NCBI GenBank assembly: GCA_021432635.1
Contig: MU270102.1
Coordinates: forward strand, 1-64,000
Source: Thozetella sp. PMI_491
Taxonomy: Eukaryota; Ascomycota; Sordariomycetes; Chaetosphaeriales; Chaetosphaeriaceae
Length of the DNA stretch: 64,000 nt
Direction of reading: 5' to 3'
Shown: positions 29,362 through 44,418 of the stretch, piece after piece
Layout of the letters: every line of letters begins with the position of its first letter
Numbering within the stretch: the first letter of the stretch is position 1
Made by a program: the position numbers and the translations under genes
Notes under the pieces: model-generated
What the model saw: only the letters and a program-made list of their open reading frames with translations
Database searches by the model: none
Told to the model about the DNA's origin: nothing

Positions 29362-32300
29362 CTAGGTATGTTCTGGAGCGGGGTTCTTCTCGTCTTCCGG
29401 CACCTCGTCGTCTGGCACCTCTTCTTCTGGCACTTCGTCTTCTGGCACCTCGTCTTCTGGCACCTCGTCTTCTGGAACTTCATCTTCTGGCATCTCGTCT
29501 TCTGGCACTTCGTCTTCTGGCACCTGCCCCTGGTACTGTCGACTGCCACTGATGCTCTCTGACTGAAAGTCATCCGCCACGAGCTGTATGTTGATTTTGT
29601 CTTCAGATTGAACCCAAATCTTCAAGACGGAGTCAGTATCAGACGGAGCACGAAACCGCCCCTGCTTCGTCATGACTTCGAGAACAGCTTTATCAAAATG
29701 CCAGATATCTTCAGAGCCGCAAATAAACCGCAGGTTGCAGAAACTAGAGATCTTGCTGCCAAAAGCCTTGGTTATTTTGGAAGTCTCTTTGAAGCGGCAT
29801 CGAATATGACCTGATGATATATTAAAGAAGACTCAGCATAGGTTCAAGGCAAGGCTTATCTGGGCCAAAGGTTATCTGACTAGGTAGACCTATACCACAG
29901 TCTCCTTTCAAGTGGCTTACCATATATGATCCAACCTCCCTTTTTGGAAGGCTTGGATGAGGCTTTATCAAAGTAGAAGATGCTCGATATTAGTCGACGA
30001 GTAACCTGGTTAACCCTGTTAAGAAGATTGTTCGTGATAAGCATGTCTCCCAAGAGCACTGAGATGCGAGAATGATCTGCCAGGAGAGATACATCATCGC
30101 CGTTCGGTAGCGGAGAGTCCCTGGAGAACTCTCGACATAGACGAATGTATCTATCCGGCTCCCGATGTGATTTATCCCCAAACGCCTTGCACCACATGGC
30201 TTCCGTGCCCATGCAGTCTTCTGAGTTGTCCGAAGTTATCTGACTCTTGTGACCGCAGCCAATAGAAACAAGAACGTCCGGTGGGCAGCTTAGCATGTGC
30301 GGCCAGAGAGATTGTGCCTCGAGGAGCGTCACCACAGCTGGACAGGCAAAGTCATGCGCGCCGCCCACATGCAAATCATTGCCAGGATTCAGGGTACAGG
30401 GGCCGAAAAAAGGTTGAAATGAAGCAGTCGCCTTCGCTGCTTCGCCAACGGAATAAATCTCAGAATATTCGTGACTTTTTCGATTTTTCTGAGCCGTATT
30501 TTGATTTTGATCTTGATTTGTGTCCGTAGCTTGTCTCCGGTAGTTCGTTAGAATCATCCCGCCCAATCCCTTCCTCGTCGAGGCCACAAAGAGCCGTATC
30601 GGTCCACTTCCAGTTTTAGTTCGTTGCGACTGGGCTTGAACTTAGCTACACTCACTTGTCAAAGCCACGGGGTAATCTCACCAGTGACATGGCCATTGGT
30701 AGTTTCGAGTCCTCGCCGATGGCGTTCTGGATACTCCAGATGAGGTTATGTTGAGAGTAGGGGTACTTAGGGCCCCACAGAAATTCGATGAAGCTCTGCG
30801 GAGATTGTTTTACGAATACCTTGGGAATTAGTTTGCTAAATTCTTTGATGGCCATGGAAATGTGCCACCCTCTGATGCCCAGTCCTAAAGCGTTGATTCC
30901 GCCAATGCCGGCCCCGCCGATCAGGTCGAAACAGTCCTGCACCGGGATTTCTTCACCAAGCCCGTCTTGGATGGCGGCCAAGACAGAGAGTTGCAAGATT
31001 CCTCTGACGCCACCTTCGTCAAGGCTGAGAAGCCTTCGCCCGACGGTATTAGGGAGATTGAGGAACTCAAAGGGTGGGTTAAGCTCCATGCCTCCTCCAG
31101 GGTGTTGATCACAGAGCTTGAAAATAAACACCCTATCGTCGTCATCACTCCTTATACCAATTTCAACCATGCAAGATGAGCAGATCCAGTGGCCGCAAGG
31201 CAGTCTTTCGGTAGGGAAATTTCGCATGCACCAGACGCAGCTAGGGAGCTTCTGCAGATTTACGTCCAACACCAGATCGTGCAAGTCTCTAATGGCCTTC
31301 CTGTGAAGATCCCATAAGCTGGGCAGCTCCGCAGTCTCCAGGCTGCACAGTCCGGCGGCCAGAGCGTAAGCCCATTGCTCAAGAAAATTGTCTTCGAAGT
31401 ATGGATCGAACAGACCGGATCCAAAACGGACCCCACTTGCATCCTGATGGAATCCTTTGCCGCCTTGACCGTGGGCTTTCTTACTGTTGACGCATACTGT
31501 TCTTTCCTCGCTAGAAGAGCCCGGGGACATGTAGCCGCACGGAATAGTCGAATCGGTAAACTCCCGGAGGGCTTTATCAACAGTATCCTCGTAAGAGTCG
31601 TCTCGCATTTCCAGGCTGCCTGGTGAAAAGTTGGAAGTATCACCTCGGAAGATGTGATAGAGAACGCCTGGAAAGTGGTTTCGACGACTGTCCATGGCAA
31701 TGGTTGAGCAAATTAAAGGAACCGCAGCTTCTACGAGTTGCTCAGCGTAAGCTTGGCGATTGGATGTTTTGTTTCCGTGTTTGACCGCCTTGAACGTTGC
31801 CTGCAGGAGCTCGAAAAAGTTGCCCGAGAGCTCGGCTGGAGAGTGGTGAACCGTGAAGAAGGCTTCCATGAAATCGAACGGGGAGGTCATCGACTTGGAG
31901 AAATGGTCGAACGTGAGCTGGTATAAATGGTGCAACTGCTCTGTGGAAAGAAGCATATTGCTCTCTTTCTTATTATTCTGTACGGTCTTCGCTAAGGAGT
32001 CGATTATGGCATGCAATTCTTGAAATTGTGACCTCAGACGTGATACGTTATGGGCAGTCGGAAGCCGAAGGAACTGAACAGCCGCGTAGGAGTTCTCGAG
32101 GATGGCTTTAATGCTGCCGTGTGGCAGATTGAGGTTTGATAGCTCGTTCATACGGTTCCTAATCGTCTCACTTTCGTTCATTAGATATTTGTTCTCCTCG
32201 AGAATCTGTGTCGTGGTCTCATCGGATCCCCATTTTTTAATTCTCGCTGGGTCGCATTGGTTGATCACAACGACGAGTGATGGAAGGGACGACCTGTTGA

Positions 32301-33483
32301 CAGAAGATGTCTCTGCCTTCTGAGACCATCTTACGAGCTTCTCGAGAATCTTGCCTACACTGGTGACGTTTGATTCAGACACGACGTATACGACAACATC
32401 TGAAACGTTATACACGAGCCTTGGGAAGAGCTCCTCCACAGCATTACTGCGGCTAGTATTCGAGTCTGACCAATATAGATTACGGGTCATGAACCTCATC
32501 GTGGCATTGAAGGTATCCTTTGTCCATTTCGTGAGCTTTGATGCATTCTGTCGTACGTGGAGTGGTGCTGCATTTTCCATGTTTTTCATCGATTGTGCCC
32601 TGCTACGTGCGGCGGCTGAGTGATTTGCGGCTTCGAAGCCTTCACAGTCGGCAAAAAGCAAAGGGCTTTGGGGGTTTGTCTTCGCCTCGATTGGGTCGTG
32701 GTAGAGATGGATATCGGATGACGTCGGCAGGGTGGTGATGATGTCCCCGGTTACAGGTACAAGAATACCATCAAGGTCTCGGTCGGTAACTCTGGAGTCC
32801 CACAAGTGGCCTATGAGCACCTCTATCAATGAACTCTTCCCAGCGCTTGTGTTACCGACAAAAGATACCAGGCGAGGGTAGTACGTTATGGGTCCATCCC
32901 CAGATGACCGCTGGACTTTCCTGCGGTGTTCTTCCATGACATCTGCGAATCTTGGGCATTCGTTGAAAGAGAACGGGCTGCCACTGGTGTCGTCGGAGCT
33001 AGACACTGAAACCCAGAGAGTCTCTAAATCACGGCAGTGGCGCTCATATTGCTGGTGGTCTCGATTCTGCTGGTCCTGCTCGACAGCGGTGGGATAGAAT
33101 ACCTGTTCAAGCCGGCGGCTTCACATTGGCGAGAAGTAAGAACAACTGGATTTCTTGACTGCGGTCCTTATTTTACAGACAGGGGAGGCTGTTACTAACC
33201 TAGAATGGACAATCTCTCCCGTTGGTGATCCCCCAGTCAGCTGTTTTCGCTCGTGTCTATAGTCCCCTCGAACGTGGGGGCTCGCCCCTGGCCAACAACT
33301 GTCGCACAAGTAGAGTTTGCATTGGGAACAATACGAGGTCGCTAGTTCTTGTGTATCTTCGGGGCACCAATCGCAGGGGGGCAGTTGATCTGACGAGGCA
33401 GGTTGCTGGCCCGAGGATGATGGCTCAGTAGCCCAAGCCTCCCGCTCGGGGCTTAAATCGAGCGAGGCCTCGATGCCCGACAT
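29362..33483 (-). CDS. B-box-like / P-loop GTPase / RING-like / pseudo-patatin protein
   Basis: Four minus-strand exons (33483-33200, 33118-30656, 30606-29921, 29810-29362) give 1293 residues; introns 81, 49 and 110 nt. Order: B-box-like Cys/His site (37-77: CDWC, YCSQC, CDSC, later H); P-loop GTPase with GNTSAGKSS (183-191), DCEG (252-255) and NQCD (381-384); helical middle; RING-like site (722-764: CVWC, CGHWICSSC, CDQH); patatin domain from about 790; and an acidic PEDE repeat tail. The patatin fold is recognisable (LSLDEGGVRGI, FDLIGGAGIGGINALGLG, VGEAAKATASFQPFF, DVLVSIGCG). However, the oxyanion DGGGxR reads DEGGVR, the nucleophile GTSxGG reads GAGIGG (Gly832 for Ser), and the DGG/DGA acid reads VGGA (residue 996). 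It is therefore very probably not a phospholipase. The architecture recalls fungal NLR-like proteins with a patatin effector, with a GTPase instead of NB-ARC; such a role is inference. The frame is open and splice sites are good, so it is not an obvious pseudogene. Confidence 0.82.
29390..29524 (-). repeat. in-frame 15-bp minisatellite (PEDEV repeats)
   Basis: About nine tandem 15-bp units encode Pro-Glu-Asp-Glu-Val/Met near the C-terminus of the pseudo-patatin protein. Units differ by a few substitutions (EEE, DDE variants). As 15 is a multiple of three, unit gain or loss keeps frame; length is likely to vary among strains. On the plus strand it reads as CTCGTCTTCTGGCAC repeats. Confidence 0.85.
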
Positions 33484-35193
33484 TCCTTGGAATTAGCGAG
33501 GTACTGTATTTGAGAAGTGTGTTTGAAAATAGTTAAGAATCAATCGTAGAATTCTTTTGCACGGTTAAGTAGATGTAAGTGCCAAGATGGGAGGGGAGCT
33601 TCCAAGATGAAAAGTCAGATGGTAGCAGGAGCGAGGCTACTGATGCCTAACTGATGCCCAACTCCTATCGTCCAACTCTTGTTAAAGTAGAGAGACGAAT
33701 GCCCCTCCATCTCGCCTGGGTCATGCTCTGCTAGTCTACTGGCTACCTTATTCTCCGGCTCTTCTGCGGTTGGTCAGCCCAGCAGTTGGTGTGCACGCGC
33801 TCCGGACTAGATTGGATTGGCCCATCGATTAGTAGTGAAGGTCCTCCAGTATATATAATCTAATGGGCTTCCTATCTACTTGATTCTCATCTACTAGCAG
33901 ACTGCGTGTGGAGCCAGCAAATACCCAAATAGAGATGGGTTTTGGGGATGGCGAGAGACAGACTACGGGCTTGCCGACCAACGCGACAGATTCAGGCTTT
34001 CGAGCCTCACTTAAAAGACATCTATTCCTGCGTCTCGATAGGTACCCTTCAAATTCTTGTTAGACGTATTTATAGGCCGGAGAGCTAGTAGAATTGGCTA
34101 CTACAACATGGATTGACTTGGCTACCACAAAATGGCCGGTACGAAATGGCTGGTACAAAGTGGATAGGACAAAGATTACGCCAATTACATTTAGTTTAGT
34201 ATGCTTAAGCTATAACGTTGAGATCGAAAGGCGGCTGGATTACTTCAAAAGGAAACCGCCCGAAATAGCGGCACTTCCGTACACACATAAATAACTAACT
34301 ACCCAATTTTCTTCTATTATCTTCTTAGTATCGGCCTACACCTTAGACTTCTTCTAATAGTCTTTCATTCGCTTAACGTTAATCAGCTGCCCGACTGTAA
34401 TTGGCTTAGTTTAACCCCTCGGCCTATATACGCAAGTACATAGTACTTAGCCTCGAAATACTGACAGACTGACACTTACCGAGAGCTGCCAAGACCCACC
34501 AAGGCTACACTGGATTCTACTCAGCATTATTTTCTCAAGACGGAAGGAAGCGCTTGGAAACATGCATTTGCATGTAGCCTACCTAGTGCAGTGGATCATC
34601 TACGCCCTTAACGCTACTATTTTTCCTTGTTGTAGGTAAGCGACAATGGGCCCGTCCCTTACAGCTCAGCGTACAGAGATGAGCCACACACTAGGTGGTA
34701 TAAGTTGCGTGACTCGCTCTTCAGTGATGTTGTCTGATTTACCTTGGTACAGTAGAAAAGTGCACATAAAAACTCCATCAAAACAACCGCAGAATCAAGA
34801 TATCACAGTCACTAGTGTATTACTTTGCCATCTGGCACCGATTACCCCACCCACAGTACATGCTCGCGCGTGCAAGTGATACCAGAGAATGAGGTTCTTC
34901 CCAGACGTAGAAACCATATCTGGTTGATCAAGGAGGCTACCTTTCACACCACACCCGGTATTTTGCAGCGCAAAATTATAGCCAGGACTAGAATAATATA
35001 AGATCAGCCGGTCACCATGTCTCGTCAGTGCCCGCAAGGATGGGGATTCCTTAACCCATCCAATGCAGCCCACTGGAGGTTCACGGTAAACCAAGACCCT
35101 GCCGCTTTACCTTCCATCTGTGTGTAATTGCTATGAATTCTCTAAATGCTGAACCTCCAAATCCTTCCGGTTCCTCTTCTCCCTTCGCACCGT
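33484..35193. other. intergenic, possible decayed repeat
   Basis: About 1.7 kb without a supported gene. At 34090-34165 there are degenerate short direct repeats of the type GGCTACNACAAAATGG / GGTACGAAATGG / GGTACAAAGTGG. The 34190-34450 part is AT-rich. No transposase or terminal repeats were identified. The first few hundred bases should be the promoter of the pseudo-patatin gene. Confidence 0.45.
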
Positions 35194-40649: not shown

Positions 40650-41025
40650 AAGCACTATTTAAGATATCAAGAAGAACCTTTAGAACTAACAATGCTCTAA
40701 TATAAATATGCGAACCAATCTCTGGCCCAGCAGCCTCACTCCGTGTTAGTTAAACGTACCCAGGATCGCTATTCCACCTGTTATTGTGAACGAATGTACC
40801 TCAGATATCTTAACCCAACGCAGAGTTGCACTTTGCACAGTTGCGCGAATGTTACCTTACCAATATCATGTGACGAAGGAAGTGCCTATCAACAGGCTCG
40901 ACACAGAGTGCGGCTGAGTCGAAGAAACGGTTAATTCTTACCCCGCAGATTCTCCTTCTCTTTCTATCCATCGCTTGGCCCATAACGAGAATTCGACCAT
41001 TCGCTATTAATTGAAGATCTAAGCA
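40650..41025. other. intergenic, no gene seen
   Basis: 376 bases between the transporter and the broken NLR-type gene. It has a putative AATATAAATATG terminator/poly-A area near 40698 and nothing else recognised. Confidence 0.45.
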
Positions 41026-43565
41026 ATGGACGATAAGCCGCTCTGCCTTCTAGCCCTGGGTAAGCTCATGTGGATCTGTCCTTATGTCTATACTGACAAC
41101 TGTAGATGGCGGAGGCATCAGGGGGCTATCCGAGCTTGTAGTCCTCGAGGAGATTATGAACCGGATCAAGTTCGACCTCGACGCAGATGGAGACCTTCTT
41201 CCAGCAGATTTCTTTGACCTAATTGGTGGCACATCAACAGGAGGGTAGGATCACGCGATCGCTTGCTTTCCTGCTAATACATAGCTAATTTCGGGCTTAC
41301 CGCAGCTTAATTGCATTGCTACTTGGCCGCTTGCGCCGATCAGTGCCATAGGCCAGGAGAGAATATGTCCGTATTGCTGAAGAAGTTTTCTCCTTTCCGA
41401 GACATCTCAAGAAAAATACGTTCAACGGCCAGAAACTGGAGGCTGCGGTCAAGAGGCTTCTAGGGAATAATCGCAGCGACGAGAAAATGCTGGACAAAGA
41501 TGGTAACTGTAAGGTGTATGTTGCTAATGCCTATTGTTAGAACGACCTGCTGAACCAACTAGGTTTGTCTGCGCTGTTCCGCAGCAAGATGTCAGGGCTT
41601 GAGCTGGACCCCGACTCTTCAGGACTTATAGGGTGCGCGAAAATGCCTCGTTCAATTGCAAGATTTGGGAGGCCTGCCGAGCAACCTCAGCAGCACCTTC
41701 TTACTTCGAACCCATCAAAATAGGCGAAGATAGCGAGTAGGAGACGTTTGTAGATGGGGCGCTTGGGTACAACAACCCTATCGAGCAAGTATTGGAGGAG
41801 GCGAGGCGTGTCTTCCCAGGCCGGAAGGTTGCCTGCATAGTCAGCATTGGAACAGGCGTCGCGCCTACTATCGCCTTCCTAGGCTCTCTAAAGACAAGCC
41901 CAGTCAGTATTTTAAATGCACTGAAGGACATGGCAACCGAGTCGGAAACGACAGCAGAGAAGGTTCACAGGCGCTTTTAAAATGTTTAGGACATATACTT
42001 TCGCTTTAGCGTTGATCACGGCCTTTAAGACATTGGGTTAGAAGAGTGGAAGGAACTACCAAAACGTGCACACCTTTACGACAGGCTACCTCAATCAACT
42101 CGTCATATCCGAACAGCTCAACACTAATAGTCAGGGCCTTACTGGCATCGAAGGTTTTCGGTCAAGAGGGCTCGAACAGACAAGTTCACCTTTCCAGGGC
42201 CAGCTTGGGTTCAAGTACCTCGTAGCACCTATCTCAAACGCTAGAATAGCGGTCGATTAAAGGGTCTATCCCTAATTTTCTCTATACTACCGAGCAACTA
42301 GCATCTCATAGTATGTAGCTTTCAATCGTCTCAGCCAAGCTTGACTCTAAAACTAAGCTCCAATAGTTATACAACATCACTCACAACGCCACTTCATCGT
42401 GCCATTCGGTCGTAACGATAACTTTATCGGACGCTCAGAGGAGCTAGAACAGCTTCTAGCTCATAGTCCTCCAGAGGCTAGTAAAGACAACTGCCAGCAA
42501 ACCGTTCTTAAGGGCCTCGGTGGGATTAGAAAGACTCAGCTCGCTCTTAAGGCAGCCTTTCTGATACGCAATAATTACCCTGATTGTAATATTTTTTTGG
42601 GTCCCAGCCGTGGATGTGGCTAGTTTTGAGAATGTATATCACAAGATCGGCCAGGAGCTTAAAATCATAGGTATTGACGAAGACGAAGCTGACATCAAGA
42701 AACTCGTTCAGTCTAAACTTAGTCGTCAAGATGCCGACAACTGGCTGTTAATTGTCGACAATACAGATGATCTTGACCTCTTTGGTGCTAAATCTCTTTC
42801 GGAGTACCTCCCCTTTAGCCCTAATAGCTCTATTCTATTTACAACGCGAAACTATGACGTCACAAGAGGGTTAGACATCCCGGAGAACAGTGTTATTGTT
42901 GTTCAAGCCATGGATAAACGCAAAGCTTTCGACCTCTTGAGAAAGCATCTCAGGGAAGACCAGATACCCGCCACCAAGGTTACAACAACATTGCTGGAGC
43001 TGTTCGCCTATCTCCCTCTGGCAATACGTCAGGCATCCGCATATATTGCTAGAAATCGAATATCAATTGCGAAATACCTCGAGTTATATCTTTCCAGTGA
43101 AGAGAACATGATGGAGCTGCTCAACAAGGATTTTGAGGATCGGCATCGCTACAAAAATATCCGCAATCCTATTGCAACAACTTGGTGGATTTCGTTCCAG
43201 CAGATCTCAGACCATGACCTGCTAGCAGCAGAGTACCTGAAATTCATGTGCTTTCTGGCCGAGAAAGATATCCCGCGATCTTTGCTGCCTCAAGCTGAGG
43301 ACTTGCAGGCAGAGGAAGCGATCGGGACTCTCAAGGCATATGCATTCATCACTGAACGGGAAGAGCTAAACGCGTACGATATCCACCGGCTAGTTCGGTT
43401 GACGATGCGAAACTGGCTAGCTAAAGAAGGGAAGCTGAAGCCATCTGTCACCGCGGTAATACATCAACTTGCAGTCGTCTTTCCCTCTCCTGAATATGAG
43501 AATAGAGATTTTTGGACGAGGTATCTTCCGCACAGCTACGTGGTGTTGAAGTTTGCAACTGATTC

Positions 43566-44330
43566 GGCGGCTAGCCATGTCAGGGCGCAGATTCTTCAAA
43601 GGTTAGCAGTCGCGGTATCGAAGCAAGGGAATTATCAGGAGGCTGAGCGGCTACACCGAGAGGTACTCACGCTACGCCTAGATATACTAGGCGCCCGGCA
43701 TCCCAATACACTTACGACTATGAATAACCTCGCAAACGCAACATGGAGCCAGGGAAACTATCAAGAGGCTGAGCGGCTACACCGANNNNNNNNNNNNNNN
43801 NNNNNNNNNNNNNNNNNNNNNNNNNNNNNNNNNNNNNNNNNNNNNNNNNNNNNNNNNNNNNNNNNNNNNNNNNNNNNNNNNNNNNNNNNNNNNNNNNNNN
43901 NNNNNNNNNNNNNNNNNNNNNNNNNNNNNNNNNNNNNNNNNNNNNNNNNNNNNNNNNNNNNNNNNNNNNNNNNNNNNNNNNNNNNNNNNNNNNNNNNNNN
44001 NNNNNNNNNNNNNNNNNNNNNNNNNNNNNNNNNNNNNNNNNNNNNNNNNNNNNNNNNNNNNNNNNNNNNNNNNNNNNNNNNNNNNNNNNNNNNNNATAAC
44101 CTCGCAAACGCAACATGGAGCCAGGGAAACTATCAAGAGGCTGAGCGGCTACACCGAGAGTTGCACATGCTACGACTAGATATACTAGGTGCACAGCATC
44201 CTCATACGCTTATGACTATGTATAACCTCGCAAGTGTAATGTGGAAGCTGGGCGACTACCAGGAAGCTGAGCGACTTTACCGGGAGGCACTCACATTACA
44301 TACAAACTTGATTGGGGCCCTAGATCCTGA
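43566..44330 (+). repeat. TPR array of near-identical 126-bp units
   Basis: Units of 42 residues of the kinesin-light-chain TPR type (NLANATWSQGNYQEAERLHR...LDILGAQHPHTL). The 62 bases at 43724-43785 and at 44096-44157 are identical, whereas the terminal unit (NLASVMWKLGDYQEAERLYR) has diverged. High internal identity is typical of fungal NLR repeat domains under concerted evolution. Confidence 0.85.
43786..44095. other. assembly gap of 310 N
   Basis: A run of 310 N inside the TPR array. Flanks are identical for 62 bp, offset 372 bp, which is 6 bp short of three 126-bp units. The gap length is thus likely an estimate and the copy number is unknown. Confidence 0.99.
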
Positions 44331-44418
44331 TACACTCAGGATTAAGGATGAACTTGGCCGTCTAATATCAAATCGGGTAAGCTCCAACGGTAACGACCGT
44401 CGTGGTATGGGGTTTTAA

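What the first reader, a model, noticed from the sequence alone, without database searches (positions are those of the whole stretch)
29362..33483. GTPase-RING-patatin protein whose patatin domain has lost all three catalytic sites
Seen: complete GTPase motifs (GNTSAGKSS, DCEG, NQCD) and zinc sites, then a patatin fold in which DGGGxR is DEGGVR, GTSxGG is GAGIGG and DGG/DGA is VGGA. Known: patatin phospholipases need the Ser-Asp dyad and the glycine-rich oxyanion loop, and fungal NLR-like proteins often use patatin as effector. Inference: a full-length pseudo-patatin fused to a GTPase and a RING-like site may act as a sensor, scaffold or decoy, possibly in self/non-self recognition. Coding frame and splice sites are intact, which argues against simple decay.
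Basis: partly seen in the sequence, partly recalled or inferred. Interest (0 to 1): 0.78.

Follow-up and report, generated by a model that had tools for sequence, protein, structure and literature searches.

The report
Fungal lipase-like protein without active site
A fungal gene encodes an intact-looking protein that joins zinc fingers, a GTP-binding switch and a lipid-cutting (patatin) domain, but the residues that would do the cutting have been replaced, so it probably works as a regulator or scaffold rather than as an enzyme.

Summary
A four-exon minus-strand gene (33483..29362, 1,300 or 1,293 aa) reads B-box, GTPase, RING-like site, patatin and acidic repeat tail without a stop. In the patatin domain an oxyanion Gly is Glu, the catalytic Ser is Gly and the catalytic Asp is Gly; 80 of 80 prokaryotic relatives and four of four aligned own-genome patatins keep all three. 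No coding-strand frame restores GxSxG in the patatin region. A paralogue on contig C34 has the same GTPase-RING-patatin order and canonical motifs; searches found this GTPase at these two loci only. The window domain keeps 21 of 37 highly conserved columns, the four others 29-34, though at less conserved columns it lies among them. An open frame and a neutral-drift simulation argue against simple decay. Most likely it is a patatin pseudoenzyme acting as GTP-controlled scaffold or regulator; control of the C34 protein is a guess. It is a new variant of a known kind. Selection, expression and self/non-self roles could not be tested.

The parts
33200..33483 (-). exon 1, start codon at 33483; carries the B-box
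   Evidence: GT-AG intron 33199..33119 follows
33241..33369 (-). B-box zinc finger (PF00643)
   Evidence: 26.2 bits v cut-off 24.1; only match at E <= 0.001 in the own assembly, 27.3 bits
30656..33118 (-). exon 2: GTPase, helical region, C..C..C..H site, RING-like site, first half of patatin
   Evidence: open frame of 822 codons, splice model
32233..32880 (-). GTPase domain (residues about 175-390), GNTSAGKSS / DCEG / NQCD
   Evidence: MMR_HSR1 20.6 bits (cut-off 21.9), Dynamin_N 17.3 bits (cut-off 27), both below cut-off; 29.6% identical to the C34 paralogue
31102..31239 (-). RING-like zinc site, C3HC3H spacing (residues 722-767)
   Evidence: sequence, by eye; RING hits in Pfam below cut-off; same place in the C34 paralogue
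30656..31038 (-). patatin domain, first half
   Evidence: PF01734 30.6 bits on exon 2 alone, 44.9 bits spliced; model with 43 prokaryotic rows, pLDDT 74.7, top PDB matches CapV
31015..31017 (-). Glu 796 in place of an oxyanion-loop Gly (DEGG for DGGG)
   Evidence: Gly in 80 of 80 prokaryotic relatives and in C34, C18, C47, C15; codon GAA
30907..30909 (-). Gly 832 in place of the nucleophile Ser (GAGIGG for GTSTGG)
   Evidence: Ser in 80 of 80 prokaryotic relatives and in C34, C18, C47, C15; codon GGC
29921..30606 (-). exon 3: second half of patatin and following region
30363..30365 (-). Gly 997 in place of the catalytic Asp (VGGA for VDGA)
   Evidence: Asp in 80 of 80 prokaryotic relatives and in C34, C18, C47, C15; codon GGC
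29362..29831 (-). exon 4: C-terminal region and acidic tail (29810 is the other acceptor)
29389..29525 (-). 15-base tandem repeat, 9.1 copies, coding the PEDEV tail

Best explanation
The locus is an intact fungal gene for a patatin pseudoenzyme. It belongs to a small GTPase-RING-patatin family whose other member found in this genome (C34) has canonical patatin motifs. Shown: gene model, domain order, loss of nucleophile, acid/base and one oxyanion-loop residue, a recognisable patatin domain, complete GTPase motifs, a paralogue with canonical motifs. Inferred: the protein does not hydrolyse lipids by the Ser-Asp mechanism. Inferred with less certainty: GTP binding switches its assembly, the zinc domains bind partners or ubiquitin machinery, and the patatin domain now serves as a lipid- or partner-binding surface, possibly holding back or tuning the catalytic paralogue.
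For: Frame open over 1,300 codons with three GT-AG introns. Alignment with C34 over 984 columns, 24% identity, E 3e-54, with DGGGIRG, GTSTGG and VDGA intact in C34. Of 37 patatin columns at least 85% conserved in 80 prokaryotic relatives, the window keeps 21 and C34 34 (Fisher p 0.001); at 109 less conserved columns they keep 31 and 39 (p 0.31). Because those 80 were ranked by similarity to C34, I added a control: three other own-genome patatins (C18, C47, C15) keep 30, 30 and 29 of 37, with 33, 27 and 25 of 111 less conserved columns against the window's 30. So the losses cluster at the most conserved sites, many in or next to the active-site motifs. A neutral-drift simulation over 1,240 codons reaching the same loss gave 11 to 44 stops, and 0 of 200 runs had none. 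The true frame scores best on neighbour codon usage in 7 of 7 segments, though weakly in the first (-0.014 v -0.11) and the last (0.109 v 0.051). No RIP signal over the gene (composite -0.61). A near neighbour NLR shows the opposite picture: motifs intact, frame broken.
Against: No orthologue or strain data, so purifying selection is argued, not measured. The neutral simulation treats the lost positions as drifting at the whole-gene neutral rate. The gene's GC3 (0.564) is the lowest of the nine genes compared (0.59-0.78 in the other eight), which could mean relaxed or foreign codon use. The second patatin half is less like C34 (25.4%) than the first half (37.5%). Expression is unknown. The GTPase has no phmmer relative in the PDB up to E 10 and its single-sequence model is unusable (pLDDT 37.6). 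The link to C34 is homology only. The RING-like site lacks the usual final CPxC (recalled), so E3 activity is not assured.
Confidence: 0.55

Rival explanations
1. Non-canonical but active acyl hydrolase, as reported for plant pPLAIII patatins, which carry the Ser-to-Gly change in GxSxG and in most members a replaced Asp in DGG.
For: The same two changes in the window protein; pPLAIIIs are stated to have acyl-hydrolysing activity despite them (PMC4623698, passages).
Against: Rice pPLAIIIs keep the DGGG anion-binding element; the window protein has DEGG and has also lost the APT and NN residues, each conserved in at least 90% of 80 relatives.
Confidence: 0.12
2. Young pseudogene or strain-specific null allele: the patatin domain, or the whole gene, is no longer selected but has not yet gained a stop.
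For: Lowest GC3 of the nine genes compared; AT-rich flanks at 28-29 kb and 34-35 kb; a broken NLR about 7.5 kb away.
Against: 0 of 200 neutral runs kept the frame at the same level of loss; splice sites, GTPase motifs and (by eye) eight RING ligands kept; no RIP signature in the gene.
Confidence: 0.2
3. Self/non-self or pathogen-effector decoy: the dead patatin domain mimics the patatin effector of PLP-1-type NLRs or of C34 and is guarded or competes for the same partner.
For: Patatin is a known fungal NLR effector whose activity is needed for cell death in PLP-1 (PMC12881547, passages); a patatin-NB-ARC-TPR NLR remnant is in the same window.
Against: No NLR domain hit in the protein; the neighbour NLR is broken, so no working pair is seen in this window; no population data.
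Confidence: 0.1
4. Gene-model artefact: another splice restores the catalytic motifs.
For: Intron 2 is short (49 bases) and lies inside the patatin domain.
Against: No GxSxG in the patatin region and no DGGG or DG[AG]..NP motif in any coding-strand frame of the locus.
Confidence: 0.02

Closest known systems
C34 paralogue in the same genome (G000:C34 about 115.2-119.5 kb, L014)
   Same: collinear GTPase, C..C..C..H site, RING-like site and patatin; 24% identity over 984 alignment columns
   Different: canonical DGGGIRG / GTSTGG / VDGA; G4 reads NKIP; N-terminal finger is PHD-like (15.6 bits, below the cut-off of 24), no B-box hit; no PEDEV tail
Plant patatin-related phospholipases of group III (pPLAIII)
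   Same: Ser to Gly in GxSxG and, in most members, Asp replaced by Gly, Thr or Ser in DGG (PMC4623698 passages); GxGxG also in PMC4204433 and PMC7284883 (passages)
   Different: rice pPLAIII keep DGGG; pPLAIII are described as plant-specific and are reported active
CBASS patatin effectors including CapV
   Same: best solved relatives by sequence (a CBASS phospholipase E 2.7e-6, CapV E 2.2e-5) and CapV by fold for the first half of the domain (Foldseek probability 1.00, E 1.9e-3)
   Different: CapV has a catalytic Ser (an S58A mutant is among the entries); no GTPase or RING there (recalled)
Fungal PLP-1-type NLR (patatin-NB-ARC-TPR)
   Same: patatin domain in a multidomain P-loop protein
   Different: no NB-ARC or TPR hit here; PLP-1 needs its patatin activity (PMC12881547, passages)
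TRIM proteins
   Same: B-box and RING-like site in one chain
   Different: order is B-box, GTPase, RING, patatin, not RING-B-box-coiled coil (TRIM order recalled)

Membership tests
Patatin-like phospholipase (PF01734) | domain over the Pfam cut-off | tested here: met
   44.9 bits v 27.7 for the spliced domain
Patatin-like phospholipase (PF01734) | nucleophile Ser in GxSxG | tested here: not met
   GAGIGG; Ser in 80 of 80 prokaryotic relatives
Patatin-like phospholipase (PF01734) | catalytic Asp in DG[GA] | tested here: not met
   VGGA; Asp in 80 of 80
Patatin-like phospholipase (PF01734) | oxyanion loop DGGGxR | tested here: not met
   DEGGVR; the first loop Gly, in 80 of 80 relatives, is Glu here
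GTPase-RING-patatin family of this genome | collinear homology with C34 | tested here: met
   E 3e-54 over 984 columns; GTPase alone E 9.3e-20
Fungal patatin NLR (PLP-1 type) | NB-ARC or NACHT plus TPR/ANK/WD repeats | tested here: not met
   no such Pfam hit up to E 1 in any of the four exon pieces scanned
Plant pPLAIII | GxGxG and DGG Asp replaced | tested here: met
   GAGIGG, VGGA against the description in PMC4623698
Plant pPLAIII | DGGG anion-binding element kept | tested here: not met
   DEGG
Plant pPLAIII | residual acyl hydrolase activity | not testable with these tools
   needs a bench assay
RING E3 ligase | eight zinc ligands in RING spacing | tested here: inconclusive
   eight ligands present by eye with His at the last place; all Pfam RING hits below cut-off
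Dynamin-like GTPase | Dynamin_N over the Pfam cut-off | tested here: not met
   17.3 bits v 27; no convincing PDB relative

The most novel reading that the evidence does not exclude
The genome keeps a catalytic and a non-catalytic GTPase-RING-patatin protein as a pair: the dead one co-assembles through the GTPase domain with the C34 protein and sets the threshold for patatin-driven membrane damage, a fungal counterpart of enzyme/pseudoenzyme cell-death switches.
Probability: 0.12. Interest if true: 0.8.

Novelty: new variant of a known kind. Interest (0 to 1): 0.48.

Why it matters
Fungal patatins are discussed as cell-death effectors of NLRs. An intact, multi-domain patatin that has lost its catalytic set, beside a full-length paralogue with canonical motifs in the same genome, gives a natural pair for asking what the patatin fold does without catalysis. 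It also parallels plant pPLAIII, where the same Ser-to-Gly change is reported together with retained activity, so it makes the question whether such proteins are enzymes at all testable in a second kingdom.

Tried and rejected
A splice that restores GxSxG: rejected on sequence. RIP damage as cause: no signal in the gene. NLR membership: rejected. Relatives of the GTPase in viral contigs: 46 pattern matches, none confirmed. PDB relatives of the GTPase: the two-sequence profile gave 24 weak P-loop matches, mostly ABC transporters, with VirB11 and one EngA GTPase at E 0.86, and phmmer found none. Single-sequence AlphaFold of the GTPase: pLDDT 37.6, not used. Flanking 33.6-35.1 kb as a repeat: one match, itself. 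Rfam at gathering thresholds: nothing. Literature searches for the architecture or for a dead fungal patatin: no listed title or shown start of an abstract names it; I saw only the listings (most capped) and passages of the papers cited, and the library holds open-licence papers only.
Full report
The window is the first 64,000 bases of contig C88 (236,409 bases) of an unnamed assembly of 72.3 Mb in 157 contigs. Short introns and patatin-NB-ARC-TPR genes point to a filamentous fungus; this is inference, no name was given.

Gene model. On the minus strand, exons 33483-33200, 33118-30656, 30606-29921 and 29831-29362 join to 1,300 codons without a stop; the second-best acceptor of intron 3 gives 1,293. 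GC1/GC2/GC3 are 0.546/0.417/0.564. With codon tables from six neighbouring open frames the true frame scores above the other two in 7 of 7 segments of up to 200 codons, weakly in the first and the last. Pfam gives a B-box over its cut-off in exon 1, GTPase and RING hits below cut-off in exon 2 and a patatin hit over its cut-off; the spliced patatin domain scores 44.9 bits. The B-box is the only match of that family at E <= 0.001 in the assembly, from a search that scored 2 candidates. The C-terminal tail is a 15-base tandem repeat of 9.1 copies coding PEDEV.

Active site. Residues 795-800 read DEGGVR, 830-834 GAGIG and 996-999 VGGA. They come from 78 bacterial and 2 archaeal records. The first loop Gly, the Ser and the Asp are canonical in 80 of 80. 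Two biases: the scan patterns came from an alignment that included the window protein and so tolerated Glu in the loop and Gly at the nucleophile, but the 80 were ranked by similarity to the C34 domain, which has canonical motifs, so dead relatives further down would be missed.

Of 37 columns at least 85% conserved in the 80, the window keeps 21 and C34 34 (p 0.001). Besides the three sites the window differs at APT (FQP), NN (AC), an invariant Glu (Gln) and others, some conservative such as Ile to Leu. At 109 columns of 30-85% conservation the counts are 31 and 39 (p 0.31). Since the ranking favours C34, three other own-genome patatins were added: C18, C47 and C15 keep 30, 30 and 29 of 37, and 33, 27 and 25 of 111 less conserved columns, against 21 and 30 for the window and 34 and 41 for C34 in the same alignment. 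The window domain is thus ordinary in its background and low at the most conserved sites. No other coding-strand frame of the locus offers GxSxG in the patatin region.

Survey in the own genome. One search listed 25 exon-wise hits (33 candidates scored), which I grouped into 20 loci. In 17 of 20 a GxSxG nucleophile motif is readable and in one more (C6) the Ser stands in GTSTSG. The two without Ser are this gene and a TGL-type gene on C51 (GTATGA). I did not verify the Asp in every locus, nor whether each locus is an intact gene.

The paralogue. L014 (C34) can be read as a gene with at least six introns, with an N-terminal PHD-like finger, GTPase, C..C..C..H site, RING-like site and patatin. 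It aligns with the window protein over 984 columns at 24% identity (E 3e-54). Its catalytic motifs are canonical, two of them split by introns. By domain the identity is 29.6% for the GTPase, 34.8% for the RING region and 37.5% and 25.4% for the two halves of patatin. Searches of the assembly with the exon-2 protein of the window gene and with the C34 GTPase found the GTPase at these two loci only (best candidates only are scored). The paralogue's G4 motif is NKIP where the window gene has NQCD, so each of the pair departs from the canon in a different domain.

Decay or selection. When 1,240 codons of the window coding sequence are drifted neutrally until 16 of the 37 conserved codons have changed, 11 to 44 stops appear (median 26.5) and 0 of 200 runs has none. 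This treats the lost positions as neutral from the start; if they were lost by selection the test says less. RIP indices over the gene are those of ordinary genes (composite -0.61). A near neighbour is a local contrast: 41023-44418 (+) is a patatin-NB-ARC-TPR gene whose patatin motifs still read DGGGIRG, GTSTGG and VDGA, but it has at least five stops in the frames that match patatin, a frame change near 42.6 kb and a P-loop reading GGIRKT. There the frame went first and the motifs stayed; in the gene of interest it is the reverse. Against this, GC3 of the gene is the lowest among nine compared, and no strain data exist.

Structure. The first half of the domain (159 residues with some upstream sequence), aligned with 43 of the 80 prokaryotic loci, gives pLDDT 74.7 and pTM 0.63. 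Its only meaningful PDB matches are two CapV chains (Foldseek probability 1.00, E 1.9e-3 and 2.3e-3; none of 13 matches passes E 0.001). By sequence the best solved relatives are CBASS patatins, CapV, patatin-17 and iPLA2beta. The prokaryotic rows shape such a model, so this supports the fold class, not the state of the active site.

Known parallels. Patatin hydrolysis uses the Gly-rich oxyanion loop, GxSxG and DGA/G (PMC12871566, passages). Plant pPLAIII proteins have Ser to Gly in GxSxG and, in most members, Asp to Gly, Thr or Ser in DGG, and are stated to be active nonetheless (PMC4623698, passages). The window protein repeats the pair of changes in a fungal protein of unrelated architecture and goes further by changing the oxyanion loop. 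In fungi, PLP-1 is a patatin-NB-ARC-TPR NLR whose cell-death role needs patatin activity (PMC12881547, passages), and patatin is one of the standard N-terminal domains of fungal NLRs (PMC4986451, passages). The main texts of five fungal NLR or immunity papers searched for the word GTPase hold no occurrence of it. That similar long proteins are annotated in many fungi as FabD/lysophospholipase-like is my recollection and not a result.

Mechanism. Shown: domain order, intact frame, loss of the catalytic set, paralogue with canonical motifs. Inferred: no Ser-Asp hydrolysis (about 0.88); maintained by selection (about 0.75). Most likely working picture: GTP binding controls assembly, B-box and RING-like site recruit partners, and the patatin domain binds lipid or protein without cutting; control of the C34 enzyme by co-assembly is the most attractive special case (0.12). 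Each of these steps beyond the sequence is inference.

Noticed in passing
window 41023-44418 (+): Patatin-NB-ARC-TPR (PLP-1-type) NLR gene with intact patatin motifs but at least five stops in the patatin-like frames, a frame change and a P-loop GGIRKT; part of the TPR array (about 43786-44095) is masked as N.
   Followed up: partly
L022 (G000:C51 about 11.06 kb): A TGL-type patatin in the same genome reads GTATGA at the nucleophile motif, Ser replaced by Ala: a second candidate pseudo-patatin of another subfamily (subfamily name recalled).
   Followed up: partly
L014 (G000:C34): The paralogue with canonical patatin motifs has NKIP in place of the GTPase G4 motif N-K-x-D, and one intron that fits only as GC-AG.
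   Followed up: no
window 29389-29525: In-frame 15-base minisatellite coding an acidic PEDEV tail, likely to vary in length between strains.
   Followed up: no
window 34000-35000: AT-rich stretch with a RIP-like composite index (+0.39) upstream of the gene, but only one copy found in the assembly.
   Followed up: partly
window 33241-33369 (-): The only B-box (PF00643) match at E <= 0.001 found in the 72 Mb assembly.
   Followed up: partly
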